Positions 1 through 46,840 of a stretch of DNA of 64,000 bases are shown in pieces. The stretch is from Zelonia costaricensis (taxonomy: Eukaryota > Euglenozoa > Kinetoplastea > Trypanosomatida > Trypanosomatidae). A program made the translations under genes and the position numbers. The stretch spans positions 32,202 through 96,201 of the forward strand of contig JASAOO010003530.1 of NCBI GenBank assembly GCA_030849075.1, written 5' to 3'. The notes beneath the pieces were generated by a model. The model ran no database searches, had not been told where the DNA came from, and saw only the letters and a program-made list of their open reading frames with translations. Numbering within the stretch: the first letter of the stretch is position 1; each line of letters begins with the position of its first letter.

Positions 1-651
1 GCGCGTGGCGCCCTTCTTCACCCCCGCACGAGCGGCAATAGTGCTGGACTTGAGGCGGTCGTACTGGTAAGCCGCCGTGACAGCGTACGTGGCCGTCCTC
101 TCCACCACATCCTGCGCCCCCAGCCGCTGCGCCGGGTGGTAGGCGTCGACCGTCGTGTTGACGTCCTGCTTCGGCGGGTGCAGCGAGACCCACGCCGCGC
201 GGCACGCCTTCGCCTTGCGCACCGCCGCGGTGACGGCCAGGCGGTAGTCCCGCACGGAGGAGTGGGGGCCAAGACCAGCCACAAGCTCCGCCGGCTTCAC
301 GGACGCAGTCGCAGCGTGTGCAGCAGTAGCCGCAGAGCGCTTTGCCTCGCGCTTGCCCGAGGACGCTGCTGCAGCGGCGGTGGTGCTCGAGGTCGGTGCC
401 CAGCGGCGGCGGAAGTCCACCTCACCCGCCTTGCCGGTGAACCCCGGCGGGAGCGGCAGCGCATCCTCTGCGTCGCCTGCCGCAACGGTGTTGGCGGCGG
501 CCGCCGCGGTGCACTCGGCAGCGGTGAGAAAGTGAACGTGCACGCCGGGGCTCTTGCTGAGCCGGTTGCGGCGCCCGCTCATCAAGTTGGCGGCTGGACT
601 GACGGGGAGTGAGGCCGGCAGGGGGCCGCGAGCGAGCACGCGGCGGAGCAT
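1..651 (-). CDS. Hypothetical protein with mitochondrial-type N-terminus, 3' part missing (cut by window edge)
   Basis: An open minus-strand frame starts at the ATG at 651 and stays open for 217 codons to the left edge, so the C-terminus is missing. I do not recognise the family. The N-terminus (MLRRVLARGPLPASLPVSPA) is rich in Arg, Leu, Ala and Ser and has no acidic residue for about 45 residues, which fits a cleavable mitochondrial presequence. Then come an Ala-rich linker, a Lys/Arg/Ala-rich stretch around residues 110-130, and a more ordered part with WVSLHPPKQDVN and TAAYQYDRLK. Frame openness, codon bias and the minus orientation, shared with all neighbours, support it as a real gene. 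The next gene in transcription lies beyond the window. Mitochondrial import is inferred from composition only; a role in the kinetoplast or mitoribosome cannot be claimed. Confidence 0.6.
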   Translation of the reverse strand, partial: MLRRVLARGPLPASLPVSPAANLMSGRRNRLSKSPGVHVHFLTAAECTAAAAANTVAAGDAEDALPLPPGFTGKAGEVDFRRRWAPTSSTTAAAAASSGKREAKRSAATAAHAATASVKPAELVAGLGPHSSVRDYRLAVTAAVRKAKACRAAWVSLHPPKQDVNTTVDAYHPAQRLGAQDVVERTATYAVTAAYQYDRLKSSTIAARAGVKKGATR

Positions 652-11791: not shown

Positions 11792-12697
11792 CTACTGCCT
11801 CTTGCGCTCCTCCATGTCGAAGGAAGAGCTCCGGCTGTTCTCGTCGACGGCCGGCTCGCGGAACGCCGCCCTGGAGGCGCGCTCTGCATGCGCCACCTGC
11901 GCCTCACGCTCGCGCATGCGGCTACGCTGCGGGGTGTCGCTGTAGTCCAGCTTCATGATTATCTCGCGGTAGTAGCTGACGACGTTGTCCAGGAAGATGT
12001 CGGTGGTGGTGGCGCAGAACTCCTGGTACATGACCAGCACCTCCTCGTAGCGCGCGTCGAAGCCGTCCAGCTGACTCTGGTACGCCTTCTCCTTGGTATC
12101 GCGCTCGTCGACGGCCTTTGCGTAGCTCCTGTTCGCCGTCACGTTCTTGCTCTTATTCGCCGCGGCGGACTCCATGCGCTTGACAGACTTCCTCGATGCG
12201 CCGTAGCGGCTCATCTGATCCTCCGTCTTCTTGCCCTGCGCGATAGCCTGCGCCGTGGCCTTGCTGAGCTTTTCCAGCTCCGCGGCAATCTTGTCCTGGA
12301 TCTCCGCGCGGTACTTGGCGCTCAGACCCGACTTGGCGTCGTCCATCGCTTTGCAGAAGTTCTGCGACATCTGGTACGACTCATCCGCGAAGTCGCGGTC
12401 GATCCTCGTCGTGCTGCCGCCCTGGTCCGCGCCGTCCGCACGGCTCTGACGCCGCGAGGTCGACCCGCCCGTGCCGCCGTGGCTGAGGCACGCCGTCACG
12501 CCCGCGTAGCCCGCACCGACATCCCGCAGGCACTTGGGCGTGCCGTCCATGTTGGTCAGCGCTGCCGTGATGCTCTTCTTCAGCGACTTGTTCGACTCGC
12601 GCAGCGTCTTGAGCGTGTCGTAGCTGCGCTTGAACTCAGGGTTGACGTCCTTGCCGTCCGCCTTGGAGACGATGATGTTGCTGAGCTTGTTGCCCAT
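11792..12697 (-). CDS. N-myristoylated BAR-like protein (BAR paralogue 1)
   Basis: The protein has 301 residues. It starts MGNKLSNIIVSKADG; Gly2 with Ser6 is a good N-myristoyltransferase signal and supports the ATG at 12697. Residues about 20-60 and 100-260 are predominantly helical with heptad-like spacing (for example FCKAMDDAKSGLSAKYRAEI and KIAAELEKLSKATAQAIAQG). The block YAKAVDERDTKEKAYQSQLD, followed by GFDARYEEVLVMYQEF and DIFLDNVVSYYREIIMKL, matches the last long helices of a BAR domain and aligns with the same block in the genes at 14575 and 20063. The C-terminus from about 260 is charged and probably disordered. BAR domains dimerise into curved modules that bind acidic membranes. 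A myristoyl anchor in place of the usual N-terminal amphipathic helix is unusual. BAR assignment: helical pattern plus paralogue comparison, no search run. Confidence 0.75.
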   Translation of the reverse strand: MGNKLSNIIVSKADGKDVNPEFKRSYDTLKTLRESNKSLKKSITAALTNMDGTPKCLRDVGAGYAGVTACLSHGGTGGSTSRRQSRADGADQGGSTTRIDRDFADESYQMSQNFCKAMDDAKSGLSAKYRAEIQDKIAAELEKLSKATAQAIAQGKKTEDQMSRYGASRKSVKRMESAAANKSKNVTANRSYAKAVDERDTKEKAYQSQLDGFDARYEEVLVMYQEFCATTTDIFLDNVVSYYREIIMKLDYSDTPQRSRMREREAQVAHAERASRAAFREPAVDENSRSSSFDMEERKRQ

Positions 12698-14574: not shown

Positions 14575-16983
14575 TCACGACGAGCCCTCGTGCCGTACCT
14601 GCGAGTCCTCCCACGCCCGCACCCCCAGCAGCCCCGGCTGCGGGGTGGGCACCGGGCTGTCCAGGCCGCAGCTAGCCGAGAGGCTCTGCGAGCGGCCCGA
14701 CACGCCGCCGCTGTTGCCGTTCGCATAACCACCGCCACCGCCGTACCTGCCGGCGTCGGAGTCCACTCCATCCCCACACCACGGGTACGCGCCTGCCGCA
14801 TCCCTGCAGCTGGCACGCACGGACGCGGGGTGAAAGCCGGTCTCGAGGCTGGACAGCACCGTGTACCGCTGCGGCGCCGCCCCAGCAGGGGCGGCGGGGA
14901 TGCACTGGGTGGGGCGCGGCGCGGGCTCCTGCGCGGGTCGCTGCCCGTGTCCGCCGCCGAACGCGTACACACCGCTGGCGCCGCGATTCCGATCTGAGGC
15001 GTCCAGCCACTGTGTGTTGATGCTCATGGACATGTTGTCGTCCTCGGGCGGTGGTGGCGCGGAGGCAAACCCCATCGCGCCGGCCGCCGCCCCCCCTGAA
15101 GGGCGCCGACCCTTCGTACTACGGCGCGCGTGCTGCTGAGTGAGGGCCATTACGTCGCTGATGGTGGCGGTCGACCCGCGCGGGCGTGGGCTGTGCAGCG
15201 GCACGCGGAGCTCGTCTGCGTGCCCGGGTGTCTCGGAAGGGAAGAGCACGAGGGGCTGCAGCGACCCACGCGGCGTGCGCTCGCGGGCGTCGAGCGACAC
15301 GTAGTGGTCGTCGAAGGGCTCGGAGGAGCGGCCGCGCTGCAGGGCAAGGAGCAGGTCCGCACGGTCTGCAGCCGCTGTTCCGGCAGGCCCCAGCGCCGCG
15401 GGGCTGCGACGCTGGTCCGGGCGCTGCGACGACGGTGGCACGTCGGCGGCGCGGCACGTCGCAGACGCAGCGGGGGACGGGAAGGCGGCGACGGGTGGGG
15501 TGGCGCCCGTACCGAACGGGGTGTGGCGTGCGGCGGGCTCCGCGGTGGGCCGCCGAGGCGCCGCCGCGCCGCGCCGCTGCGCCGCCACCGAGCTCCCCGT
15601 GAGCCTTCCGGAGCTCATGTCCGCCGCAGGAGTGCCCGCAGCGGCGGGCGGAGCGGCGAGAACGGCGAATGGGTTGGTGGGGCGCCCGACGAGGGGCAGC
15701 GGATCGGTGTGGCGGGCCGCGGCGTGAAACGACGGGGCCTGCTGTGGGGGCGGGGACGGGTCCGGCTCCTCCGCGGAGAAGGCGCGGCTCGCGAGCTGCG
15801 CGGTGTGCACCGTGTTGCCGCCGCTCTCGCCCCCGGCAAAGTGCAGTGGGGTGCGGTAGTCGAGAAGCAGCTGCCGGTGCGGCGTGCCGCCCGCGCCGAG
15901 GCCACCCGGCGAGTTCGGGTTTGCGTTCTCCTTGTGGATCGTCTGCGCGGCTGCGGCCTCTCCGTCCTCCTCGTCCATGCCCCGCGCCGTAGGCGGCGCC
16001 CGCTCCGCCGAGGGGGGCAGGTTGCGTCGGTTGCCGTAGTAGCAGGTGAAGTTGTGCGCCGACCCGCCGCGGCTCGACTTGGCTGGGGTGGCCTTGCCCG
16101 GGGATTTGCCGAGGCTGCCGCTCATGTCCGCGCTCACTGCATCGCCAGGACGAGGGCGCAGGCGGCTGCCCAGCTGCTCCTCCGGTGCCACGCCGAGGCG
16201 CTCGCCGAGTTGCTCACCGCTCTCCACCATGCGCTGCACCGCCTCCGGCCCGTTCGGCGCGAGGCAGCCAACCACCTTCAGCATCTGCGCCAGGTACGTC
16301 GTGTTGGCGTCGAGGAAGTCGTCCATGGTGTGGCCCGCGACGTACATCTGGCGCTGCATGAGGGACTCGTACTCGGCGTCGAAGGTGCGCAGCTTCGCTT
16401 CGTAGATCTGCTCGTGTTGCCGCATCTTGCCCACCTGCTTCACGTACAGCTTGCTCTCCGTGAGTGGGCGGCCCTTGTGGAGGTACTTGGCCTCCTTCTT
16501 GCTCACTACCTTGCGCGAGGTGATGAGCTTCCGCAGCGCCGAATCCACGTCGTCGCCAAGCTCGCGGGTCTTCTGGGAGCACTTGAGCACCTCGTGCAGC
16601 CGCGCAAGCACCGTCTGGTGCACCGCCCCGTTGTATGTCACGTACTGCGCCCCCTCCTTGATGCTCTTCATCTCCTCCGAGAAGAGGGAGCCGGCGCGTT
16701 GCAGCGTCTGCCCGTAGCTTTCGGCGAGGCGGTTGTGAAACGAGATGTGGTACGCGGTGTTCATGCAGCTGTGCGGGTTCGTGTTGTTGATGCACTGCGC
16801 CACCTCGTGGTAGCTGTGGCCCACAAGCGAGAGGCTGGAGGCCACCTCCCGCATGGCCTGCGAGGTGCGTGTGATGTGATTGTCGAACTGCTTCAGCACC
16901 TTGCCGAAGAGCTTCACCCGCTCATGGCGGAGGGAGAAGTCGTAGTTGCCGTTCGCCGGCGACGGGCTCTTGGCGTTGAACAT
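14575..16983 (-). CDS. BAR-like protein with long disordered C-terminal tail (BAR paralogue 2)
   Basis: The protein has 802 residues from the ATG at 16983 (MFNAKSPSPANGNYDF); the frame runs 14 codons further only to a GTG. Residues about 17-245 are the helical module. It includes RVKLFGKVLKQFDNHITRTS at the start and KLYVKQVGKMRQHEQIYEAK with KLRTFDAEYESLMQRQ near its end, followed by DDFLDANTTYLAQMLKVV. That end block aligns with BAR paralogue 1 and more weakly with paralogue 3. The remaining 550 residues are disordered, rich in Pro, Ser, Ala, Gly and Arg, with many PxxP-like stretches (for example DPSPPPQQAPS) that could recruit SH3-type or other partners. The layout resembles amphiphysin or arfaptin-like adaptors with a long tail. 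The polypyrimidine tract upstream ends at an AG two bases before the ATG, so the acceptor could be very close. BAR call by pattern only. Confidence 0.72.
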   Translation of the reverse strand: MFNAKSPSPANGNYDFSLRHERVKLFGKVLKQFDNHITRTSQAMREVASSLSLVGHSYHEVAQCINNTNPHSCMNTAYHISFHNRLAESYGQTLQRAGSLFSEEMKSIKEGAQYVTYNGAVHQTVLARLHEVLKCSQKTRELGDDVDSALRKLITSRKVVSKKEAKYLHKGRPLTESKLYVKQVGKMRQHEQIYEAKLRTFDAEYESLMQRQMYVAGHTMDDFLDANTTYLAQMLKVVGCLAPNGPEAVQRMVESGEQLGERLGVAPEEQLGSRLRPRPGDAVSADMSGSLGKSPGKATPAKSSRGGSAHNFTCYYGNRRNLPPSAERAPPTARGMDEEDGEAAAAQTIHKENANPNSPGGLGAGGTPHRQLLLDYRTPLHFAGGESGGNTVHTAQLASRAFSAEEPDPSPPPQQAPSFHAAARHTDPLPLVGRPTNPFAVLAAPPAAAGTPAADMSSGRLTGSSVAAQRRGAAAPRRPTAEPAARHTPFGTGATPPVAAFPSPAASATCRAADVPPSSQRPDQRRSPAALGPAGTAAADRADLLLALQRGRSSEPFDDHYVSLDARERTPRGSLQPLVLFPSETPGHADELRVPLHSPRPRGSTATISDVMALTQQHARRSTKGRRPSGGAAAGAMGFASAPPPPEDDNMSMSINTQWLDASDRNRGASGVYAFGGGHGQRPAQEPAPRPTQCIPAAPAGAAPQRYTVLSSLETGFHPASVRASCRDAAGAYPWCGDGVDSDAGRYGGGGGYANGNSGGVSGRSQSLSASCGLDSPVPTPQPGLLGVRAWEDSQVRHEGSS

Positions 16984-20062: not shown

Positions 20063-20764
20063 TCACGACTGCATGGTCTTGGAAAGGTTGGAGTAGTACT
20101 TGACCGAGTACGTGTGCAGCCCGTCCACAACCCGCTGCAGCGTCTGGCTGCGCTTCTGCAGGAGCGTTGTGTAGGTCGCGCGGAACTTCTCCGAGTCGGC
20201 GTCCGCCTCGGCACGGAGCTTGTCGCGCTTGGCCACCTTCTCCGCAAACTTCGGGTTGTTCGCGACACCCTGGTTCTTCTTGGCCAGCTTCGTCTCGAGT
20301 GAGTCGACCTCGGCGCGCTGCTTGTTGAACTTAGACACCACCGCGTCGTTGGTCGCCTTGGCCTTCTCAGTGACCCTGATCGTTGACTTGAGCTCATCGA
20401 TCGCGGTGCTGATCTCGCGCGTGAAGTCGTTCATGTAATTGACAAAGGAGTACGTCTCGGCACCGCTCAAGCGACCCGGCGGCAGCTCCGACGCGCGGCG
20501 CGACTTGCTGCCATTGCCGGCGATGGAGTTCGTGGCCATGTGCCGATCCACCGCCGTGCACAGACTGTCCGCGCGCGTGCGGATGGCCGAGTTCTCCTCG
20601 CCCTGCGAGAGCTCGCGAATGGCAATCGCGATGGCCTCCATCGCCCCATCGAGTTCCTTCACCGCCGTGAGGTACTTCTTCGATGCCGCATCGTAGCTGC
20701 TGCAGGCGTGCTTGAGCTTCTTGATCAGCACGGACTGATCATCCGAGGGGGCCGCCTTGGGCAT
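20063..20764 (-). CDS. Compact BAR-like protein (BAR paralogue 3)
   Basis: The protein has 233 residues from the ATG at 20764 (MPKAAPSDDQSVLIKKLKHA); a longer frame begins only at a TTG. It is almost entirely helical: SVLIKKLKHACSSYDAASKK at 10-29, a second helix at about 30-65 ending with RELSQGEENSAIRTRADSLC, and long helices from about 110 to 230 (YSFVNYMNDFTREISTAIDE, and VAKRDKLRAEADADSEKFRA followed by TYTTLLQKRSQTLQRVVDGL). The length and four-block arrangement match a minimal BAR domain with almost no extra sequence. The final helices align with those of the other two BAR-like genes downstream, so these are probably tandem duplicates that diverged long ago. No acylation signal is present. 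A conserved helical block of this sort in other kinetoplastids would confirm the family. Confidence 0.7.
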   Translation of the reverse strand: MPKAAPSDDQSVLIKKLKHACSSYDAASKKYLTAVKELDGAMEAIAIAIRELSQGEENSAIRTRADSLCTAVDRHMATNSIAGNGSKSRRASELPPGRLSGAETYSFVNYMNDFTREISTAIDELKSTIRVTEKAKATNDAVVSKFNKQRAEVDSLETKLAKKNQGVANNPKFAEKVAKRDKLRAEADADSEKFRATYTTLLQKRSQTLQRVVDGLHTYSVKYYSNLSKTMQS

Positions 20765-28034: not shown

Positions 28035-30571
28035 CGTGCGTGTCTCTCACAATCACAGGCGAAAACGGTAAGCGGGGGTGAGAAGGAAGTGTGGCTCGTG
28101 GTGGTGCGTTGGGTGCGTCGGGGGAGGACAGGATCCAGCCTATCTGAGCAAGAGAGGAGGAGGAGGGGGGGGAAGATGCGGCAGGGCTCAGCCGACACAC
28201 ACGCACACACACAGAGAGACGCGCAAACGTGCGGGAGCGCTTAGACGCGAGGGAGAGCGAGCGGGATCACACTGTACGCGCAGACAAGCGCACAACCGTG
28301 CGAAGCACCTCACAACGAGGCACTGCACGCGTTGACGGCAGGCGAGGCACCAGAGTTGGAAGCCGCCACACTAAACACGCGCGCAGTGGAGGTGCACACA
28401 GAGAGAGAGAGAGAGCCCCGCGCCAACGCGGAAGGATGCACCCAAAACGTGCGGGGACACGGGGACGCACACACAGAGGGGAAGAAACAAAGAGAACACA
28501 CAGAAGAGGGGAGAGCAAGCCCGCAGAGAACTGAGAAGAGCGCGCGAGCGACCGATATGCGAGTTTGGGAAAGTGGGGAGGGGGGTGTATGCCTTTGTGT
28601 GCGTGTGCGTGTCTGCTTGTGTGTGTGTGTGTGTGTGTCTAGCGACCTCGTCTCGTCCTGCAGTGAGAAGTGGCTATTGGTGAGGGGCTTTGATGTCGAG
28701 TAGGAGAGCGGTGGGGGTGGGGAGGGGGGGGAGCCTCGAGCGGTAGGACACTGAGAGAAGGAAGCCTCAAAACCAAAGAGCCGATGGCCCTGGGAAGAGA
28801 GTCGAGGCGGACGGCGTAGTGTGGTGTGCGGGGGGGGAGGTTTTACTATGCCACCAGACACGCACAAAAAAGGGGGAGGTAGACAAGGCTGTCTCGGCAC
28901 TCACGCGAGCACACGTTGCAACACACGCGCACCGCGAGAGACACAACAAGGGGAGGGGGGAGGTGAGCACTCGCACCCAGAACACAAATAAAAAACACCT
29001 GACAACACTGTAGGCTGGGGAAAGAGGAGAAGTACGAACACGTCTCGCCACTTCGAAATCCCGGCTGCCCAGCGCACTTGCAGGCACGGCAGGAAGGCGC
29101 AGGCGGCGACGAGGTGGAGTGGGGGGGAAAGAGAAGACACAGAGGGGTGTGGGAGGAGGTCGACAAGGCAGCCGGCGAGAAGACGAAGCCGTCTGCGTGT
29201 ACGTCCTGGTAAAGCGTGCTCGCGCAAGCACACGAAGTCCACCGTCGAAGACGCGCACGGTGTGTGTGTGTGGGGGGGGGGGGGGGGGCGCACCGCGTCC
29301 TTTGCCACTCGCGTGCGGGACGGGGCACCGTTGCGACTACCCGACTGGCGCACACACGCTCGCACGATCGCTGCTGCGATGGCCGCACTGCTGCACCGCG
29401 ACACGTGATGGGCGCCCTCTTTGTACTTTTCCCCCTTTGTTCCCTCAAGGCCCCGTTGCGCTGCAGCACGAGACGCCGCAGTGCAGGGGCACCGCGCCAA
29501 CCACAGCGGCGGCGGTCTACACGGGCGTACTGGAGAGACGCAACGCGAGGCTCGCGCGCTCACTGTGCTGAAGTGGCAGCGAGGTCCGGCAGAGGTCCGA
29601 GACGCCTCGGCGCGGGGGTGCAGCGGTGGAGGCGGCGGAGCTCCCGGGGAGGAAAGGGGGCCTGCGGCGGAGAAGATTCGCGTGCCACAGCGCCAATCCA
29701 GCTCGCCAACACAAACACACGCACCCGCTAAATTCGGAAGCTGAGGCGGCGTGCACGGGGAGAGCGGGGGTGATGAGAAGCCGGGGACGGCGACCACGGT
29801 CAGCACAAGGGCTGAAGACGAGCGGCTCAAACCCAAAAACCAGCCACAGCGGCGTGCGACGAGAGCGGCTTCCCGTGAGCGGGTGCAGGTGGAGACCGAG
29901 AGCGCGACGAGAAGGAGGGGAGAGAGGGAGGAGGCTCAGCTCAGCACGCGTTCCAACGGAGAGTGCACGAGGAGGGGTGGACAGAGGCCCAGGTCACCGT
30001 CACGTCCGAGTTGTGCCGAGAGCGAGTTGGAGCGGGGGGGACAAGGAGCGTCGGGGAGGGGGAGGGCGTCCAGCGACGCACGTTGCGGGGCGTGTGTGAG
30101 ACGGGGATGGGAGGGCGGCACACGAGCAACGGAGGGGGGGAGGGGGAGGAGGGACAACACAGGAAGGAATAGCGGATCGCCGAGCGGCTGCAACAACGGG
30201 CCACACTGGTGTGATCGCACAGTTTGAGGGGGCGGCAGTGTTCGTATGTGTGTGTGTGTGTGTGTGTGTGAAGGAGCGTCGTACGCAACAGCCACAGCAA
30301 AGCCAGAAGATTCGAGAGAGAGAGAGAAGTGAGTGGTACGGCTGGAAAAAGAAATGGCGCAGCGTATCACCTCCGCCTTCGATGCTTCCGTCCCTTGCAC
30401 GACGTCTGCGCCAGGGGGGCTGGTAGCAGGCGAGGAGCAGCGATCTGGAAAAGCGGCCGTGGCCCAGCAGCCTCCCTTCCCCGCTTCCCCTTTCCCATTT
30501 TCAACGAGCCGATCGTTTCGAAGAGGCGGGGGGAGGGGAGGGGGGCGGTGGCACCTGGCGACGTGGCTCAC

Positions 30572-30602
<31 letters not shown>

Positions 30603-33600
30603 GCCGCTGTTGACACCGAGCTTTACTGTCGGGACAGCTGGCGGGAGAAGCGCCGCGAAAAGAAGGGGGGAGAACAGGGGGGAGGGGCGCGCTGAACGGA
30701 GTCCGATCTCGCCTCCACTCCCCGTCCCCGCTCTATCTCTCCCTCTCTCCGCTGCTGTGGCCTGTCGCTCAGACATGCGCCGCCGTCTTCTTCTCCTTCT
30801 TTCTCTTGTCCCTTGGAGGTGTCTCGTACTGGAGGTGTCGGTGTATGTGCGACGCATCAACAAGGCTCTCGCATCGCGTCAGCGTGGTGCTGACGAGTTT
30901 TGCCTACATGCATTTTCATCTTCTTTACAGAGTAGCGATCACGGGTTGGCTCCCCGTTTTGTTTTTTTTCTTTTCGTCTAAAGCAATGGAAGAAGATAAA
31001 GAGAAAGGGAGAACGCCTTCTGCGCCGCCAGCGTCGTTGTTCCGTCTTCTCACCGCTCCCTCGCTTCACCGCAGGCCGCGCATCACGCGTTTGCCCCCCC
31101 CCCCCCCACACACACACCTCCACCTCCACCTCGTCGCCTCATTCCTCTGTTCGTCCACCCCACGCGACCCGTGCTCCACTGGCACGGAGGAAGCGGGAGA
31201 AGGCGAGGCTTGCGGAAGGAGGGGCGGCGGCGGCGGAGGGCGTGGAAGGGGGAGGGGGGGGGGGCACGGGTGGCGGACAGAGGGAGGGAGGTAGAAGGGG
31301 AGGGGTGAAACTGAGGAGGAGAAAACTGAAACTCATACATCGACAGTGGTTGTCCCCGCGATGCCCTCCAACTCGCCTGCTGCGGCCTGCTTGTACTGTG
31401 GCTCGTTTTTCCTGTCCCTCTTCCGCTGGGCTCTTGACTGCACTCATGGCCCACGCACACACACACACACACACCTCATGTGCGTCACCTTCATGCCAGT
31501 GTCAGAGAGGGCAGTCGAGCCCGTTCGTTCCTGTCCGTCCTTGACCATCGCACGTTGCCTCCAGCAGTGGTAAAACACGCACACGTGGTCAGCAGCGCTT
31601 GTGAGTCGCCGTCCGAACACGCGTGCCGGTCACACGCACGCACACACACACAAGTACGTGAAGAAGGGACGAGGAAGGCGCAGGCACCTTGTATACATGG
31701 CGCGCAGAGACGTCCATCATCGCCGTACTTCGCCCTGATGTGTGCGCCTGCACAGGAGTTGCTCGTGGGGGGAGGGGAGAAGGAAGCGATGGGGAAAGAA
31801 GCGGGAGCCCCTGGAGCCGTTAATGGGAAGGGCGAAGACAGAGGCGGGTCGCGAAGCGAAGAGGGGGAGCGAGTGTCTGTGCGTGTGCGTCGGTGTGCGT
31901 CTGCCTTCGCCCACGAGAGACGCCGCAACACACAATGAGAAGCGACGAGCAAAGCGGCACGGAGGGGAGACACCAGCACACACACGCACGCGCGCGCGCG
32001 CTCCGCTACGCGCGGACAGCGCAGAGTGAGCATGCGGACGGGTATGCAGCGAGCGGGCAGTGCGCAAGACACGGGAGAGATGCTCGGCAGGACCAAGCGA
32101 AGACGTAGAAGAGGGCCGCGCACCGGAAGGCAAGGACGCGTTGATGGGGAGTGGTCGGTGGGAGAGACAAGGGGGGTGCAGCGGCGGTGGCAAGGGGGAG
32201 AGGGATCAGGCGAGGCGGGGGGGATGAGGGGACGGGGGGGGGAAGAGGAAGGGGGGGGGGGGTCCGCTTCATGGGGTGGGAGGGGGAGCAACGCAAGGGA
32301 AGAAGGAGCAGCCTGTGTGCAGGTACGGGCGGAGGGACCCAAAAATGGAGGAGGAGGAGAGAGAATCAAACGGAGGCAAGCAAGCTAAACAAGGAAGGGA
32401 GTGAAAACCAAATTAAGGGTACGGAAGAGAACTCAGCGTCGAAGTCAGCGATCGTCCCTCCTCCAACACACACCCATATACATGAATGAGCTCACGCATC
32501 TAAGCTTGCACGCACACACACACACACAAACGCAAACGCACGCCCGGAGATGGAGGGATGGGGGGAAGGGCCATACGGAGCGGGGAGCATCAAACCCAGA
32601 CAGCGACCACACCCCCGCGCTGTGCAAGCTTCCTACAAGGAAAAGGAGGGACAAGAAGCCAAGGGCTTGCAGCGAGGGGGACCGCCGTGAAGGGGGCGGA
32701 GTGTGTGCTCATGGGTGGCGAAGCGGCGATGCGCGCAGGGGGGAACGCGGAAAGGCATGGGGATGGGGGAGGGCGTGAGAGACGACAGAGGGGAGAAGGA
32801 AAGCTCTGAAGAAACAAAGCAAAAGACAGAGCCCGCAACGCACCAGCGAACAACGCAAAAACCACGGGACACGACGCGTACGAGCCGACGAGGTGAGTGC
32901 CGCTTTACACGCGAGCCGGGGGCTCCCCCTCCTCCCTCGCACTCCTCCCCCCTCCCCCACCCCCCCCCCTTCCATCCCCTCCCGCTTTCCTCGTCCCCAT
33001 CCGCGACAGCGAGGAGCAGGTCGGGCACCAGCACAAAACGGGAAAGGACGCGAGGCGAAAGAGGTGCATGTGGAGGCATCGAGGAACTCACGCAGGGGAA
33101 GGGGGGGAGACGGGGGAGGGGTGCGCGCTACACACACACGCACACACACACACACAACATCAGCAACAACAACAACAAATAGGAAGAAGATGAAGGGACG
33201 AGCCGTCAGAGACTGGAGGGGCGTACCATGCGAGGGGGGCGGGTACCGGAGAGGTGGGGTGGTTTCGCCGAGGACACGCAGACCAGTGAACTGCACAAGG
33301 TCGTGTTTCGTTTCTTCGCAAGAGGTGGGTTGGCTGCGGTGAGGGTGCGAGTCGGGGCAGAACTCCGAGGACGGAAGAGCGGAGAAGGACATGGGGGGTG
33401 GGAGGGGGGGGGGCGACGGGGGGACGCCTTGAGAGGGGAGGCTAGCACGGTACAAGAGCACACACCCGCACACAGGCAGAGAGAGAAAAGGGCGCAGCAT
33501 AAAACGGGAAGGACAGGGAGCGCCGTTCGCACCGAGGAGGGAGGGGGGGCAGCAGCGTGAATCCCGTCACACAAACACACACACAAGCACAGTGGCGTAC

Positions 33601-34539
33601 AAACGTTCAGCAACGCACAAAAACAAAGGCGGCAACAACGCCGCTGTTATCTACAAGGGCGATCAGCCCCCGACGTGGCACTCAAGGTGAAGAGGAAGGA
33701 GGGGTCGGAGGTGAGAGGGGGAAGAAAGAAAAGCGGAGAAGAAGCCGGTGCGGGGCGGGGCGCCGGGGGGGGGAGGTGAAGGGGCGAAGGGTGCAGGTCA
33801 ACGCGAAGAAGCGGCGCCTCACGTGGTCCGCGTACGATGGTGGGAGGGGAGATGGTGGAAGTCCAGCGGCGGAAGCGGTGATGAGAGAAGGGGAGGCCAC
33901 GTGCACACCCGTGGAGCACCACCGTACACTAGGGAGAGAGGGGAGGGGGGCGCTGTAGAGTACAGTCGCGAACTTCTGGCACAGAACAGGGAAGGGGGAA
34001 GATGGGGAAGAGAGTCAAGCAAACAGGAAACGCAATGCGGCCACGAAAAGCGAAGTGTCATTCATATTGGGTGTGCGTATGTGTGTGAGTGTGTGTGTGG
34101 GGGGGGGGGTCATCTGCGTTTGGAGGTGTCCGCGTGCCATCAACGCTGTGGAACGCAAACGAAGAGAAGAAGGAGGAAGAAGAGCGGAGCTTTAACACGC
34201 CGCCAGTCTGGAAAGGAAGGATGAGATGCAAGAGGAGGCGACAAGCTCGAGTCTCTCCGCCTCTTCCAAGTTCTCCCCCCCCCCTCCCTTCCAGCTTCCC
34301 TGCACAGTCGCGCACACCGGCAAAGAGGCGCACGCGTAGAGAGAGAGAGAGAGCGACAAACACACACACACACACACACACGCAGACACGACCACAAGGA
34401 GCGAGACGCGGAGTGGGGCGTTCAAGACTCGGGGGCGAGAGTCGAAGCCGCGTTGGAGGGAGGACAAAGACAAACAAAGAGTTGAGGACGCACAAGGCCA
34501 GTGTCCTCTTCGGCACTTTGCCTCTCTCACTCTCTCTTT
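28035..34539. other. 6.5-kb region without a recognisable gene
   Basis: This is the longest gene-free stretch of the window. It has TG/CA tracts near 28617-28638, 30245-30270, 30571-30595, 33129-33157 and 34363-34382, several long G runs (29272-29288, about 31252-31263, 32224-32262), and purine-rich plus-strand sequence throughout. The longest open frames (for example 28901-29836 and 31491-32369 on the minus strand) begin at non-ATG codons and encode Pro/Ser/Arg/Cys low-complexity sequence that runs through microsatellites. No tRNA or snRNA was recognised. The right part presumably contains the 3' UTR of the nine-repeat protein gene at 34540. Very short genes or noncoding RNAs cannot be excluded. 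Confidence 0.5.
29272..29288 (+). repeat. 17-nt G homopolymer after a TG tract
   Basis: An uninterrupted run of 17 G on the plus strand, directly after a TG tract. It is poly-C on the presumed transcribed strand. It is the longest G run seen and may be of uncertain length in the assembly. Confidence 0.9.
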
Positions 34540-34902
34540 CTAGTTCGCCGCATCGTCGGCCTTCTTGTCGAAGTCCTGCAGCTTCTCCTGCGCCTGCTTC
34601 TCGAGGTCGTCGATCTTGACCTCGGCGTCCTTCTGCATCTCCTGGCGCTTGGCGTCGGCGTCATGCTGGAACTCCTGCTCCTTGGCCTCCGCGTCCTTCT
34701 TAAAGTCGCTCTGCTCCTTCTGAAGGTTTTTCTCGAGCTCGGCGCGCTTCGCCTCGCCCTCCTTCTGTAGCTTCTGGTGCTCGGTGTCCGCGTGGCTCTT
34801 GATGCTCTCCTTCGCCGCGTTGGCCTCCTGCTGGATCTGCTCCTGGCCGTTCTGCGCGTCCTCCTTCGCGGCCGCCTCCGTCTTGGTGCAGAAGGAGCCC
34901 AT
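34540..34902 (-). CDS. Acylated (SH4-type) protein of nine tandem 11-residue repeats, HASP-like N-terminus
   Basis: The protein has 120 residues. The N-terminus MGSFCTK has Gly2 and Thr6 for N-myristoylation and Cys5 for palmitoylation. It closely resembles the MGSSCTK acylation motif of Leishmania HASP surface proteins (family knowledge). Residues 22-120 are exactly nine consecutive 11-mers, for example DFKKDAEAKEQ (66-76), EFQHDADAKRQ (77-87) and EMQKDAEVKID (88-98). Position 2 is hydrophobic (I, L, F or M), position 6 is often Ala, and the rest are mostly Lys, Glu, Asp or Gln. This is the 11/3 amphipathic helix pattern of LEA group 3 proteins, synucleins and apolipoproteins. There is no transmembrane helix or secretion signal. 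It is probably dually acylated and lies on the inner or outer face of the plasma or flagellar membrane. The gene at 37701 has the same architecture but a different repeat consensus. Confidence 0.88.
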   Translation of the reverse strand: MGSFCTKTEAAAKEDAQNGQEQIQQEANAAKESIKSHADTEHQKLQKEGEAKRAELEKNLQKEQSDFKKDAEAKEQEFQHDADAKRQEMQKDAEVKIDDLEKQAQEKLQDFDKKADDAAN

Positions 34903-35995
34903 TATGATTGATGGAAGATGATGAGGAAGGGTGGGGGAGAAAGTGAGCGAGTGGGAGGCGTGAGTCGGGAGTATAACTGAACGATGGAATCACACGTACA
35001 CACAAACGCACACACGAACGCAAACGCGATGCGAAAAATCGGAAGAACGGGGGGGCGCGAAAAAACAAAGGGGGAAAAGAGTGAGGAAGCGGAAGGGGGG
35101 GAGAGGATGGTGGTGGTGGTTGGGGTAAAAAGGCGAAGCAGCGTGCAGAGCTAGGGAGCGTGTGCCAGGTGATGAGGAGGTGACCCACGCGCACGCAGTG
35201 GGGAGGGGGAGAGAGGGGGGGAACAGAGGACGAGGTGAGGCCAAAGTGTAGAGAGTGAAGGACATGGGCGGGCTGAGAAGTGAGGTGGAGAGGCGGACAG
35301 CCTCCACCGCGAGGCATTCCTGAGGAAGGGGGGGGGGCCTTCAAGCACAAGCAGCCTTCATCACGAAAACGTCGGTAATTCGAAAGGCGCCGAGGTCGCG
35401 CCTCACACACGGTGCCGCGTGTCTCTGTTTGGGTGCGACAGCCGCACAACTTGGTGTCGACATCAGTGTGAAGAGCGGAACGGTGCGATTGCGCTGTGTG
35501 CTGCCTGCGTCGAGTCCTTTTACAGTGTGTGCGCGCGGGGTGTTGGCTTTTTGGGGGGGTTCTGTTTGGGGATCTCCTTTTTCGATTCAGGGGCGCCGAA
35601 GCGCAAGATAAGAGGTGTACAGCGGCGAGCCGGAGTTGCGCCTGGGCAAAACGACAAGAGCCGTCCCGCACTTCCTCAATGTGAGCGCCTCTTTGCTTCC
35701 CCTTTTTTTTTTTTGGTTCTGCTCTTGTCGGACGTCAGTCATACGCACACACACAGACACAGACGCGCAAGCGACCACGCAGTAAAGTGGACACTTCTGG
35801 TTGCGTGTGTGTGTGCGCAGATGTGCCGGTGTGGCGTGCTGTTGCCTCCGGCAACGTCCGCACCGGTATGTGCTGCGTGCGACATAGAACGTGAATCAAG
35901 ACGGGAAAACAGACATCTAGCTCAGCAAAGACGGGAAGGGAGCCGGGCATCACATTAGCGCACGTACACACACAGACACACACAAGCGCGTACGC

Positions 35996-36000
<5 letters not shown>

Positions 36001-36031
<31 letters not shown>
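36001..36031. repeat. (CA)n microsatellite
   Basis: A 31-nt uninterrupted CA tract in the spacer between the two nine-repeat acylated-protein genes. Confidence 0.95.
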
Positions 36032-36034
<3 letters not shown>

Positions 36035-36226
36035 AGAGCCTCTGACGGCATCCATGGCCCCCCTCGCTTGTTGCCGCTCTTAGTGTCCCCCGTGGCTCTC
36101 ACCTCCTCCTGCTGCAAAAGCTGTGTATAGGAAAGAGGGGCCTTGCTGCAAGAGAGGTCAGGAGCCGCACGCGTACAAGTCTGCGTGTGCGGTGAGGAGG
36201 GGCGAATAACGGGGAGGAGGGCATGC

Positions 36227-36261
<35 letters not shown>

Positions 36262-36937
36262 CGTGAGCGTGTACGTGTTTACACCTGTGTGTTTTATATG
36301 TGTCAGTGAGTGAGTGTGTGTGTCTGTGTGTGTGTGTGTGTTGGTTCATGCGACAAGCTCACACCACTCACGGAAAAGAGTAGAGAAGACGGGGAGGAAG
36401 AAGGGCGCGAGCGCAGGAGGAAGAAGAGGGGGAGAGGAGAGCGCGAGAGTTGGGGCGATGGTGCGGGCGCACAATCTCACGGAGAGCGTATGAGGACATG
36501 CTTGCGCTCGCACGGTGCATCCACCACACCGTGAACGTGGAAGTTCAAGACACCCACACCCATACACACACACGGACAAATCTCTGGAAAGCAGCTCTCG
36601 CACCAAGTTCAGACATACAAGTGGGATGACTGGTGCCCCCTCCAAATCCGCTCCGCGCATGACGCGACTGGCAAAGAGTAGCAAGCAAGAAGACACAGAA
36701 AAAAAAAGGGGGAGAGGGGGAACACACTACGGAGGCGCGAGGGGGGCGGGGGGCGGGGGCGGGTCGCTCTGCGAAAGCCCACGCGAGGTCTATACGGCAC
36801 GCACGCCAGAGAGAGAAGAGGGCGGTGAAAGGAAAAGCGGGGCGAGGGGGGAGGGGGGGTGGAGACCGATGGACTCGAGAGGGAGGGTGGGAGCGTGGCG
36901 TACAGCATGCACCACACGGCACGCATAATAACATCAC

Positions 36938-36971
<34 letters not shown>

Positions 36972-37241
36972 AACGGGGACGGCTATACGCAAACGAAAAG
37001 AGAAGGAGGAGGGTAACATCGATGAGATACATGCAAGCTCGCTGTCAAACAGAGAGCGCACGTGGTTTGGGTACACGCAAGAGGGACAACTCGGAAGAAA
37101 AAGAAAACAAAGGGAAACAACTGTAGCACAGTCGCCCTCTAACTCGTCGGCACGAAAGGGTGCAGCGGGCATGGCAAGGTCACAGAGTCGTTCCCGCAGA
37201 CGCAAATGAGGAGAGGGGTTCAGCGCTTGACCAATTGTGCG

Positions 37242-37244
<3 letters not shown>

Positions 37245-37272
<28 letters not shown>
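37245..37272. repeat. (TG)n microsatellite
   Basis: A 28-nt TG tract about 430 nt downstream of the stop codon of the acylated-protein gene at 37701, probably in its 3' UTR. Confidence 0.95.
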
Positions 37273-37700
37273 TCCCATAAACGCTGACTGTTGCCGTATC
37301 TACAAAGGCGTCACCCCACTGCAGCACCGAGCAGAGAGAGGGCGGCAGTGAGCCGTCCGCGGCAACCGAAGCCCGCAACGCGCATGGCGAGGCGGCAGAG
37401 AGAAAGCGGAAAGCGGAAAGCGCTCCATCCATTCACCCTTCACCCTTCCCCCTTCACCCAACTCCACCTTTCGGGGTCTCGAAGGGCCCATCGCCACCAC
37501 GCGCCGTATGCGCTTCGCATTTCCTGCCGCCGCACACGCACAAGACCCATGCCTCAACAAGAGCGAAGGGGGGGGGAAGCGCCGCAGTGCACCACCTTCC
37601 CCCGTACCACCGGTGCGGCGCTCGATCCCTCGGCACACAAACGCGAGAACGGAAAGAGATGCTGCGAATGCAAGGCCACGGCCACGCAGCTTCGTGTAGC

Positions 37701-38027
37701 TTACTCCGCCTTGATCTTGTCTTCCGCTTCCTGTACGGCGTCCTTCACCTTCTCCCCCGCGCTGGCCCCGGCGTTGTGTACGCCGTCCTTCACCTCGGCG
37801 GCCTTGTTCTGGATGTTGTCCCCAGCCTCCGCCGCCGCGTTGTGTGCGTCGTCGTTCACCTCTGCCGCCTTCTTCTCCGCGCCAGACTGCGCGTTGCTCG
37901 CGTCCTTCTGCGCGGCGCCCTCCACCTGCTTGGCGTCGTTCTGCACGTTCTTCTCCGCCTGCTTCGTGTCCTGCTGAGCAGAGCTCTCAGCGTTCTTCGT
38001 GCTGCCGGAGCCGCAGATGTTGCCCAT
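37701..38027 (-). CDS. Acylated (SH4-type) LEA/SHERP-like protein of nine tandem 11-residue repeats
   Basis: The protein has 108 residues from the ATG at 38027. The same frame is open for over 150 codons upstream, but that part is UTR-like and is cut off by a good splice acceptor. MGNICGS gives Gly2 and Gly6 (accepted at that site) for myristoylation and Cys5 for palmitoylation. Residues 9-107 are exactly nine tandem 11-mers, for example DTKQAEKNVQN (20-30), DAKQVEGAAQK (31-41) and KAAEVNDDAHN (53-63). KAAEVKDGVHN (75-85) is a close copy of the 53-63 unit two repeats away, so a 22-residue unit was also duplicated. Consensus positions 5 and 9 are Ala, Val or Ile, and Gln, His, Asn, Lys and Asp fill the others. 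The sequence resembles LEA proteins and the small Leishmania protein SHERP in character. It is predicted to be a membrane-anchored, conditionally folded amphipathic helix. Confidence 0.88.
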   Translation of the reverse strand: MGNICGSGSTKNAESSAQQDTKQAEKNVQNDAKQVEGAAQKDASNAQSGAEKKAAEVNDDAHNAAAEAGDNIQNKAAEVKDGVHNAGASAGEKVKDAVQEAEDKIKAE

Positions 38028-45325: not shown

Positions 45326-46840
45326 TCACTCGAGGAACTCCCATACCTGCTCCACCCCAGCGGCCGGCGAGGCCACGCAGTGCATGCGCTGGTCATGCGC
45401 GTCCACTGGAATGCGCTCCGGCATCGCCGTCGAGACCGACGTCGGCGGCGACGGCGCATGCGTCGACGGAGCCGCGTTTGAGATGCAGCCTAGAGGTGCT
45501 GCTTGAGCCCCCACTCCCCCGACCACCGCCGCCGCTGCCGCCGTGGCAGCCGCACTACGCGGGATGTGCAGCACTTGTGCATCAAAGGCGACCGCCATCA
45601 CCTCCCACTGTGGCACCGGTGGTTGCGCTGCGCCAACCGAATGCGCCTGCATCGTCGTCGTTGACGCGTGCGAGGCGGCGTGGCTTGGCGGCGTTCGCCG
45701 GCGGTGTTCGCGGCTGTGATGGGCGAGGAAGCGGTCATAGAAGCCGCCGCCCTTGCCCAGGCGGCCGCCGGTCCGCACGTCGAAGAGAATGCCGGGGGCC
45801 AAGACGAGCACGCTGACGTCGCTGAGCTCGCACACGTGCGCGTCCCCTGCATCGGCGGTGATCGAGTCGGTGGTGTCGGTGACTGTCTCGTCCATCTCCG
45901 GCGACGCCTCCCTCGTGTGCGCCGCTGCCTCGGCTGCTGATTGCTGGCCATACTCCATCAAACCGTCCGGCCGGTACCCGGCGGCATGGGCTTGTGGGAA
46001 GAGAGTCTCGTACGCGTCACACAGCAGCACGTGGCGACGACGGCGATGCATACAGGGTGAGAGCGCCGTCGCGGCGCCTTCTACCGCTTCCTGGCTGGCC
46101 GGCGCTGAAGCAGCAGGAGCAGCAGCAGCCGTCTCGTGGCAAGGTGCCGCACCAGCACTTCGCCACACACTTCCCGCCTGAACCGCTGGCGCCGACGAGC
46201 ACGTCGCAGCGGCTGCAGGCCCGAGCAGCCACGCCGCCAATGCAGTGCTGTCGAACTCGCGAATGCCGTACGCCCCCTGCGGGGCAAAGGAGCGGCGCAG
46301 GTCCTCATCGTCCAGCACCTCCACGAACGCCATCGCACTCTGCAGAGCGTGTGGGGCACCAGCGGCAGCAGCAGCAGCGGTGGCTGCTCCTCCCGCCGTC
46401 GCTGGCATGGGGCACGGCGCCGCAGTGACAGGCGCTGGCAGTCCAGTCGAGTGCGTCGAGCTCGATAACGCAGCTGCTGGCAGCTGCTGCCCGAAGTTCT
46501 CCGGGAGGACAACGGGCGTCATGACGTGGATCGCCTGCGACGCGGCCACCTGCCACAGCCGCTCCATCAGCGGGACGAGGTCCACTTCGAAGTACAGAGG
46601 CAAATACGCGAGCACGAAAAGCGGGGTCGGCGGCACGGCAGGGTGCGGCGCCGTGACTGGCCTCATGGGTGCCGCGTGGGCTGGGCGATAGCGGGACATG
46701 ATGTAGTCGTACACGTGGTCGCACACGCGCCGCGACGCGGCCGCGACCTGCGCTGGCTCTGCCTTGGCCCACGTGCGCAGGTGACGCAGCTGCTCCTTCC
46801 GCAGCGCCTTCTTGATCTGTGCCACGGGCAGTGCCTGCAT
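45326..46840 (-). CDS. 5-formyltetrahydrofolate cyclo-ligase (methenyltetrahydrofolate synthetase)
   Basis: The enzyme converts 5-formyl-THF to 5,10-methenyl-THF with ATP, returning the storage folate to the one-carbon pool. The protein has 504 residues from the ATG at 46840; the codon before it is GTG. Family hallmarks are: an N-terminal Lys/Arg helix (VAQIKKALRKEQLRHLRTWA); FVLAYLPLYFEVDLVPLMER at about 75-94; SFAPQGAYGIREF, the substrate-side Gly-Ile-x-Glu region; the nucleotide/phosphate-binding LGKGGGFYDRFL at 361-372; and RIPVDAHDQRMHCVAS near 476-491 (P-x-D-x-H-D motif). Typical enzymes are about 200 residues. Here Ala/Ser/Thr-rich insertions of 40 to over 100 residues sit between the conserved blocks, a common feature of Leishmaniinae proteins. 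All key motifs are kept, so the protein is probably active. Confidence 0.9.
   Translation of the reverse strand: MQALPVAQIKKALRKEQLRHLRTWAKAEPAQVAAASRRVCDHVYDYIMSRYRPAHAAPMRPVTAPHPAVPPTPLFVLAYLPLYFEVDLVPLMERLWQVAASQAIHVMTPVVLPENFGQQLPAAALSSSTHSTGLPAPVTAAPCPMPATAGGAATAAAAAAGAPHALQSAMAFVEVLDDEDLRRSFAPQGAYGIREFDSTALAAWLLGPAAAATCSSAPAVQAGSVWRSAGAAPCHETAAAAPAASAPASQEAVEGAATALSPCMHRRRRHVLLCDAYETLFPQAHAAGYRPDGLMEYGQQSAAEAAAHTREASPEMDETVTDTTDSITADAGDAHVCELSDVSVLVLAPGILFDVRTGGRLGKGGGFYDRFLAHHSREHRRRTPPSHAASHASTTTMQAHSVGAAQPPVPQWEVMAVAFDAQVLHIPRSAAATAAAAAVVGGVGAQAAPLGCISNAAPSTHAPSPPTSVSTAMPERIPVDAHDQRMHCVASPAAGVEQVWEFLE

What the first reader, a model, noticed from the sequence alone, without database searches (positions are those of the whole stretch)
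34540..38027. Two neighbouring acylated proteins, each built of exactly nine 11-residue repeats
Seen: both proteins start with a Gly2/Cys5 acylation signal (MGSFCTK, MGNICGS). After it, residues 22-120 of the first and 9-107 of the second divide without gap into nine 11-mers (for example EFQHDADAKRQ; DTKQAEKNVQN). The hydrophobic positions differ between the two (position 2 and 6 versus 5 and 9), so recent duplication does not explain the shared nine-fold count. Known: 11-mer arrays form 11/3 amphipathic helices in LEA group 3, synucleins and apolipoproteins that fold on membranes or on drying. Inference: a pair of lipid-anchored, stress- or curvature-responsive helical proteins in a parasite, which I cannot match to a described family beyond the HASP-like and SHERP-like character.
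Basis: partly seen in the sequence, partly recalled or inferred. Interest (0 to 1): 0.85.

Follow-up and report, generated by a model that had tools for sequence, protein, structure and literature searches.

The report
Acylated SHERP-like helix gene pair
Two small neighbouring genes of a Leishmania relative encode probably fat-anchored, rod-like helical proteins; one is a relative of the Leishmania protein SHERP and the other starts like the HASP surface proteins, so the pair is likely a pared-down version of a gene cluster that Leishmania needs to mature in its insect host.

Summary
Both ORFs have coding-type codon use, a Gly2/Cys5 start and a strong 11-residue period (0 of 10,000 shuffles at lag 11 for either), unlike 13 other window ORFs. 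"Exactly nine" is set by the protein ends, and the "different" hydrophobic positions come from the choice of frame. The interpretation (lipid-anchored 11/3 amphipathic helices) is partly supported; that no described family fits is wrong. Residues 56-106 of the second protein match Leishmania SHERP (PDB 2x43, E 6e-5). SHERP in turn finds only this protein in the whole genome, has the same period in the same register, and the match exceeds period-preserving shuffles (6 of 3000 reach it). The first protein is the only MGSxCTK start found in the genome, as in HASPB. Both lie on one contig with the counterpart of the basic leucyl aminopeptidase that precedes HASP/SHERP on L. major chromosome 23. 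Best reading: a two-gene HASP/SHERP-type locus of a non-Leishmania leishmaniine, whose SHERP relative carries its own acylation signal. Depledge 2010 described a two-ORF acylated locus in Leptomonas seymouri, so this is a new variant of a known kind. Acylation and membrane folding are inferred.

The parts
34540..34902 (-). P1: HASP-like protein, 120 aa, net charge -10, Gly2/Cys5 start and 11-residue array
   Evidence: ORF and codon composition; lag-11 z 7.8, 0 of 10,000 shuffles; single match in the genome at E<=0.001
34882..34902 (-). P1 N-terminal acylation (SH4-type) motif MGSFCTK; 6 of 7 residues as in HASPB MGSSCTK
   Evidence: HASPB sequence in PMC5540225 (passages); only MGSxCTK start found in the 28.67 Mb genome
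34543..34839 (-).
   Evidence: 6 of 9 units fit singly at p<0.05
34615..34700 (-). 33-base tandem repeat, 2.6 copies, inside P1 (among the better conserved units)
   Evidence: Tandem Repeats Finder, 75% matches
37701..38027 (-). P2: SHERP-like protein with an acylation signal, 108 aa, net charge -7
   Evidence: ORF and codon composition; lag-11 z 8.2, 0 of 10,000 shuffles
38004..38027 (-). P2 residues 1-8, MGNICGSG, probable N-myristoylation/palmitoylation signal
   Evidence: fits the general myristoylation pattern PS00008 (pattern recalled)
37707..38003 (-). P2 residues 9-107, nine 11-residue units
   Evidence: 8 of 9 units fit singly at p<0.05
37710..37862 (-). P2 residues 56-106, homologous to Leishmania SHERP (2x43), 21 of 51 identical
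   Evidence: E 6e-5; reverse search of the genome E 5.6e-4, single hit; period-preserving shuffles 6 of 3000 and 3 of 10,000
1..651 (-). Synteny anchor: N-terminal part of the basic M17 leucyl aminopeptidase (counterpart of LmjF.23.0950)
   Evidence: PF00883 E 9.2e-102 at G000:C720:31122-32063, the better of two matches in the genome; 585 aa, pI 9.43; LmjF.23.0950 pI 9.5 (PMC11184559, passages)

Best explanation
The two genes are a compact HASP/SHERP-type locus, single-copy in this assembly, in a leishmaniine flagellate outside Leishmania. P2 is a SHERP homologue in which the SHERP 11-residue helix (51 aligned residues) is continued N-terminally in the same register to 99 residues and capped by its own Gly2/Cys5 acylation signal. 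P1 has a HASP-type acylated start (MGSFCTK) followed by an acidic 11-residue array instead of the known HASP repeats. Proposed working of P2: N-myristoylation then palmitoylation pins it to the cytosolic face of a membrane; the chain, largely disordered in water, zips into a shallow 11/3 amphipathic helix on the lipid surface, with small hydrophobic residues inwards and, in the SHERP-like half, lysines at the interface and acids outwards, thereby coating or stiffening the membrane in a resting, crowded or water-stressed stage. P1 would be anchored the same way and carry a long acidic helix that is more a rod or spacer than a lipid binder. Shown here: coding-type ORFs, the period, SHERP homology of P2, one copy each in the assembly, synteny on one side. 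Inferred: acylation, membrane folding, stage and stress role.
For: SHERP is the only PDB sequence matched by P2 at E<=10 (E 6e-5). The SHERP stretch finds one place in 28.67 Mb, P2, E 5.6e-4, 42% identity. The match exceeds shuffles that keep the 11-residue phase (6 of 3000 reach it; ungapped 3 of 10,000). SHERP has the same period (lag 11 z 6.4, 0 of 20,000) and hydrophobic register, also against the unaligned half of P2 (r 0.86 at shift 0, next best 0.47). Charge layout: SHERP D/E lie 71 degrees further from the hydrophobic face than K/R (0 of 20,000), P2 56-106 52 degrees (59 of 20,000). P1 is the only MGSxCTK start found genome-wide (2 DNA matches, the other reads MGRGCTK; reversed-pattern control 0) and sits 2.8 kb from the only SHERP relative found. 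Synteny: counterpart of the basic LAP LmjF.23.0950 on the same contig, HASP/SHERP being LmjF.23.1040-1088 (PMC5380837, passages); coronin-type, acid-phosphatase and SIR2 matches in the order of LmjF23.1165/.1170/.1210 on contig C716. SHERP goes from 7% to 69% helix on drying (PMC5368061, passages). P1 and P2 modelled as one helix each, mean pLDDT 92.2 and 90.5.
Against: P1 shows no similarity to SHERP (2019 of 3000 period-preserving shuffles score as high), to any PDB chain better than E 4.1, or clearly to HASPB beyond the first seven residues (7 of 18 identical, and P2 also has 7 of 18). P1 has no charge segregation, P2 as a whole has none (difference 0 degrees), and in P2 residues 9-55 the order is reversed, so the class A layout holds for half of one protein only. 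A search of the genome with the 18-residue HASPB start found nothing, not even P1 (no candidates, query very short). Neither protein found a relative in a database that holds Leptomonas, Novymonas and Leishmania proteins (control). The genome has a second M17 match on another contig. C716 is not joined to C720. The structure models rest on single sequences. No expression, acylation or localisation data; splice-acceptor signals were not decisive.
Confidence: 0.66

Rival explanations
1. Hendecad coiled coil: the 11-residue arrays form long right-handed or straight coiled-coil rods (homo- or hetero-oligomers, perhaps P1 with P2) tethered to the plasma membrane, not helices lying on lipid. Compatible with the locus reading; it competes on mechanism.
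For: The 4-4-3 stripe is also the core pattern of hendecad coiled coils (recalled). P1 has a narrow stripe of V/I/L/M/F (13 residues, mean 30 degrees from the face) with unsegregated charges and a predicted uninterrupted helix 8-119.
Against: P2 has 24 Ala, 7 Val, 3 Ile and no Leu, weak for a coiled-coil core; its SHERP-like half has class A charge layout. Its relative SHERP is called a peripheral membrane protein (PMC3491706, abstract in the listing) and is mostly unordered in solution. No coiled-coil family reached E 0.1 in Pfam.
Confidence: 0.25
2. P2 resembles SHERP only by convergence on an 11-residue low-complexity helix; the locus is a fast-evolving site where unrelated repeat proteins arise anew.
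For: A review says HASP and SHERP may have evolved de novo (PMC4413820, passages). Period-preserving shuffles of P2 already reach a mean score of 72 of the observed 102 against SHERP. P1 and P2 are not detectably homologous to each other beyond the period.
Against: 2994 of 3000 such shuffles score lower than the real P2; SHERP is the only hit at E<=10 among 177,635 PDB sequences, which by recall include apolipoproteins and synucleins, and P2 its only hit in the genome; the position matches the SHERP region.
Confidence: 0.15
3. Desiccation or osmotic protectants of LEA group 3 type that act as soluble molecular shields, the acylation motifs being incidental or inefficient.
For: 11-residue period, extreme hydrophilicity (GRAVY -1.58 and -1.05) and no Phe, Tyr or Trp in P2; drying-induced folding of SHERP. 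SHERP matches LEA_4 weakly (E 0.0028, below cut-off).
Against: LEA_4 is not among the matches of P1 or P2 (the filters drop most matches above E 0.1); both have Gly2 and Cys5, and P1 has the HASPB-type start that is published as dually acylated (PMC3491706, passages).
Confidence: 0.15

Closest known systems
[quoted passage not shown]
   Same: Homologous over 51 residues (21 identical); same 11-residue period, register and charge layout in the aligned part; same chromosomal region
   Different: P2 is about twice as long, carries a Gly2/Cys5 acylation start (SHERP is, by recall, not acylated) and is single-copy in this assembly
HASPB/HASPA (hydrophilic acylated surface proteins) of Leishmania
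   Same: P1 shares 6 of the first 7 residues of the dually acylated SH4 start, strong hydrophilicity, internal repeats and the chromosomal region
   Different: P1 repeats are 11-residue helical units; no full HASP sequence was in hand to compare. One copy here against five HASP genes listed for L. major
oHASP/OHL genes of L. (Viannia) braziliensis and the two ORFs at the same place in Leptomonas seymouri (Depledge 2010, PMC2946902)
   Same: Two acylated-repeat ORFs between conserved flanking genes; degenerate repeats in the L. seymouri pair
11-mer amphipathic helices: apolipoproteins A/E, synucleins, LEA group 3
   Same: 11-residue period near 98 degrees; sub-threshold Pfam Apolipoprotein matches
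   Different: No family-level match; neither synuclein nor LEA_4 among the matches of P1 or P2

Membership tests
SHERP | Sequence homology to SHERP | tested here: met
   P2 yes: E 6e-5, E 5.6e-4 reverse, beyond period-preserving shuffles. P1 no
SHERP | Gene at the chromosome-23 HASP/SHERP region | tested here: met
   Basic LAP anchor on the same contig; the coronin side lies on another, unjoined contig
SHERP | Very small and non-acylated (recalled), peripheral on ER/mitochondrial outer membrane (recalled) | tested here: not met
   P2 is 108 aa and has a Gly2/Cys5 start; so a SHERP relative, not a SHERP in the strict sense. Localisation not testable
HASP | Dually acylated SH4 N-terminus | tested here: inconclusive
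   Motif present: MGSFCTK against MGSSCTK; modification itself not tested
HASP | Conserved HASP N- and C-termini with hydrophilic central repeats | tested here: inconclusive
   Start alike over 7 residues only; the C-terminus could not be compared because no full HASP sequence was in hand; an 18-residue query found nothing in the genome, P1 included
oHASP (OHL) | 10-residue repeats | tested here: not met
   P1 and P2 have period 11; 10-residue repeats described in PMC2946902 (passages)
LEA group 3 (LEA_4, PF02987) | Profile match over cut-off | tested here: not met
   Not among the matches of P1 or P2
Apolipoprotein A1/A4/E (PF01442) | Profile match over cut-off | tested here: not met
   19.4 and 18.8 bits against a cut-off of 90
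Membrane-induced 11/3 helix | Disordered in water, helical on lipid | not testable with these tools
   Helix predicted; a gain of helix is seen in print here only for SHERP on drying

The most novel reading that the evidence does not exclude
P2 is a surviving bridge between the two families of the locus: an acylated 11-residue-repeat protein like P2 was the ancestor, from which Leishmania SHERP arose by loss of the acylation start and shortening, and HASPs by keeping the acylated start and replacing the helical array by variable antigenic repeats. HASP and SHERP, described as apparently unrelated and possibly born de novo, would then be two offshoots of one insect-stage membrane-helix gene.
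Probability: 0.2. Interest if true: 0.75.

Novelty: new variant of a known kind. Interest (0 to 1): 0.55.

Why it matters
HASP and SHERP are reported to be needed for L. major to mature in sand flies (PMC3015063 title and abstract start, listing; PMC5271408, passages), yet their origin and biochemical role are open; one review says they defy comparative explanation and may have evolved de novo (PMC4413820, passages). A SHERP homologue outside Leishmania, with its own acylation signal and next to a HASP-type start, would give the family a traceable history, would predate a vertebrate stage if the host is monoxenous (not shown), and points to a membrane-bound 11/3 helix as the ancestral function, which can be tested with recombinant protein and liposomes.

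Tried and rejected
Protein database searches with P1 and P2 gave no match at E<=10 among 27 and 22 candidates. As a control, the conserved neighbour at 20063 gave 17 matches, ten with named trypanosomatids including Novymonas esmeraldas (73%) and Leptomonas seymouri (58%). So the database holds such organisms, and the empty answers mean relatives that are diverged, unannotated or absent. A match as weak as that to SHERP would be borderline there (about E 2 by scaling to that database), and SHERP itself (57 residues, recalled) lies under the length limit for candidates. The control also argues against the genome being L. seymouri, as does its size (28.67 Mb, 755 contigs, against 27.3 Mb, 1,222 scaffolds in PMC4552786, passages). 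A literature search for the contig count named no species.

Two further genome hits of P2 (C732, E 0.006, with a stop codon; C466, E 0.57) were set aside as chance; the first was displayed but not analysed further. P1 and P2 as recent duplicates: rejected. Foldseek of the P2 model against PDB: no match, uninformative for a lone helix. Splice-acceptor scan: pyrimidine tracts of 16 and 13 bases upstream, not decisive. More genes of the kind in the 6.5 kb gap before P1: none of 40 codons or more with coding-type composition by my thresholds. 'Exactly nine' as a meaningful shared count: rejected. The opposite-strand ORFs over both genes were taken as frame shadows.
Full report
WHAT IS THERE. On the minus strand, 34540-34902 encodes a 120-residue protein (P1) and 37701-38027 a 108-residue protein (P2). 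Third-position G+C is 0.95 and 0.89 against 0.26 and 0.39 at the second, a coding signature in this 64% G+C window. Both are very hydrophilic and acidic (GRAVY -1.58 and -1.05, net -10 and -7), and both start with Gly2 and Cys5. Each has one convincing match in the 28.67 Mb assembly, itself, with the caveat that assemblies can collapse copies.

THE PERIOD. Self-similarity peaks at 11, 22 and 33 residues in both proteins; at lag 11 none of 10,000 shuffles reaches the observed value in either. Thirteen other ORFs of the window give no lag-11 z above 2.6 in 122 windows of up to 110 residues, and none above 3.0 over their whole length. The tallest hydrophobic period of P2 is 97.5-98.0 degrees in 4 of 4 settings, that of an 11/3 helix and not of a heptad coiled coil; for P1 it is 97.5 degrees in 1 of 4 settings and 164.5 degrees (near 5/11 of a turn) in the other three, with strong power at 98.2 degrees throughout. 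The hydrophobic moment exceeds all of 3000 shuffles in both. The count of nine is a by-product of two proteins of similar length: unit by unit, 6 of 9 (P1) and 8 of 9 (P2) fit at p<0.05, and the predicted helix of P1 spans about ten units.

P2 IS A SHERP RELATIVE. Against the PDB sequences, P2 has one match at E<=10: SHERP, 2x43, residues 56-106, E 6e-5. Taken back to the whole genome in six frames, the SHERP stretch has one match, P2, E 5.6e-4, 42% identity. Because both are periodic and low in complexity, I shuffled P2 within each of the eleven phases, which keeps the helix pattern: 6 of 3000 such sequences reach the local score of 102 (mean 72.3), and 3 of 10,000 reach the ungapped score. 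SHERP itself has the period (lag 11 z 6.4, lag 22 z 6.3, 0 of 20,000 each) and its hydrophobic register equals that of P2, also of P2 residues 9-55, which lie outside the alignment (r 0.86 at zero shift, next best 0.47). In SHERP and in P2 56-106, basic residues sit near the interface and acids on the polar side (difference 71 and 52 degrees; 0 and 59 of 20,000 permutations). In P2 9-55 the order is reversed, over the whole of P2 the difference is zero, and P1 has none. P1 is not like SHERP (2019 of 3000 period-preserving shuffles do as well), nor like P2 beyond the period (658 of 3000 period-preserving, 77 of 3000 full shuffles).

P1 STARTS LIKE HASPB. The first 18 residues of L. major HASPB, MGSSCTKDSAKEPQKSAD as printed in PMC5540225 (passages), are published as enough for dual acylation and plasma-membrane targeting (PMC3491706, passages). 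P1 shares six of the first seven. A DNA pattern for MGSxCTK has two matches in the genome, and only P1 has the serine (the other reads MGRGCTK, translated by eye); the reversed control has none. Beyond residue 7 there is no clear likeness: 7 of 18 identical in all, and P2 also has 7 of 18. A direct search of the genome with the 18 residues found nothing, P1 included.

THE PLACE. In L. major, five HASP and three SHERP genes are listed at LmjF.23.1040-1088 (PMC5380837, passages), the basic leucyl aminopeptidase is LmjF.23.0950 (pI 9.5; PMC11184559, passages), and coronin, an acid phosphatase and SIR2 are LmjF23.1165.1170 and .1210 (passages). Here the better of two M17 matches lies at the start of the window on the same contig (E 9.2e-102; the other, partial, on C470, E 4.3e-46). 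It is a basic protein of 585 residues, pI 9.43, about 34 kb and six larger ORFs from P1. A DUF1899 match (N-terminal domain of coronins, recalled), a His-acid phosphatase match (one of five in the genome) and a SIR2 match (one of three) follow each other on contig C716. C720 ends where the window ends and is not joined to C716, so the second flank is by content only; if the contigs are neighbours, the coding strand switches between them.

WHO OWNS IT. The neighbour at 20063 is 96% identical to an unnamed public sequence, 73% to Novymonas esmeraldas, 60% and 58% to Leptomonas pyrrhocoris and L. seymouri, and 55-59% to the four Leishmania named among its 17 matches. From this one gene I infer a leishmaniine outside Leishmania, nearest to Novymonas among the named matches.

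WHAT IS KNOWN. Depledge and others (PMC2946902; abstract, passages, sections 14 and 18 read) found at this place in L. braziliensis acylated proteins with 10-residue repeats, and in Leptomonas seymouri two ORFs with degenerate repeats and predicted acylation, and proposed a pre-Leishmania origin of the locus. They call the HASP and SHERP families apparently unrelated. Herpetomonas muscarum is reported to have neither (PMC6872171, passages). I saw no report of a SHERP homologue outside Leishmania in the listings (30 of 430 papers shown; 30 of 34; 10 of 10), but read passages of only eight of the papers they list; one of these names HASP and SHERP among surface families of four genera in general terms (PMC10747355, passages). 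SHERP in water is 7% helical and in a dried film 69% (PMC5368061, passages); the paper taken to be its structure report was not held.

HOW IT PROBABLY WORKS. P2: acyl anchor plus a 98-residue helix that forms on the membrane, with a weak Ala/Val/Ile face, so binding would need the anchor and would cover much surface without deep insertion. P1: same anchor, long acidic helix with mixed charges, more likely a rod, spacer or coiled coil. The models (P1 helix 8-119; P2 helix over residues 10-107 in protein numbering) are single-sequence predictions and do not tell lipid-bound from coiled-coil helices. The main rival is a membrane-tethered hendecad coiled coil, stronger for P1 than for P2. The odds given to the rivals overlap with the main reading, since they compete on mechanism and not on the locus.

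VERDICT. It is a new variant of the HASP/SHERP locus, whose interest lies in an acylated SHERP relative beside a HASP-type start outside Leishmania.

Noticed in passing
window 11792-12697, 14575-16983, 20063-20764 (all minus): Cluster of BAR-like membrane-curvature proteins beside the locus: 14575 against 11792 E 4e-11, 11792 against 20063 E 6e-5, 14575 against 20063 no match; several relatives of 20063 are named BAR domain-containing by UniRef. No BAR profile match was listed for the three in Pfam.
   Followed up: partly
window 28035-34539: 6.5 kb between two genes without an ORF of coding-type composition by my thresholds.
   Followed up: partly
window 45326-46840: Putative 5-formyltetrahydrofolate cyclo-ligase in which the best Pfam stretch covers only 345-379 of a 504-residue, Ala-rich ORF.
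   Followed up: no
window 2230-4206: ORF with a hydrophobic N-terminal stretch and chitobiase C-terminal / Fn3-associated domains over the Pfam cut-off.
   Followed up: no
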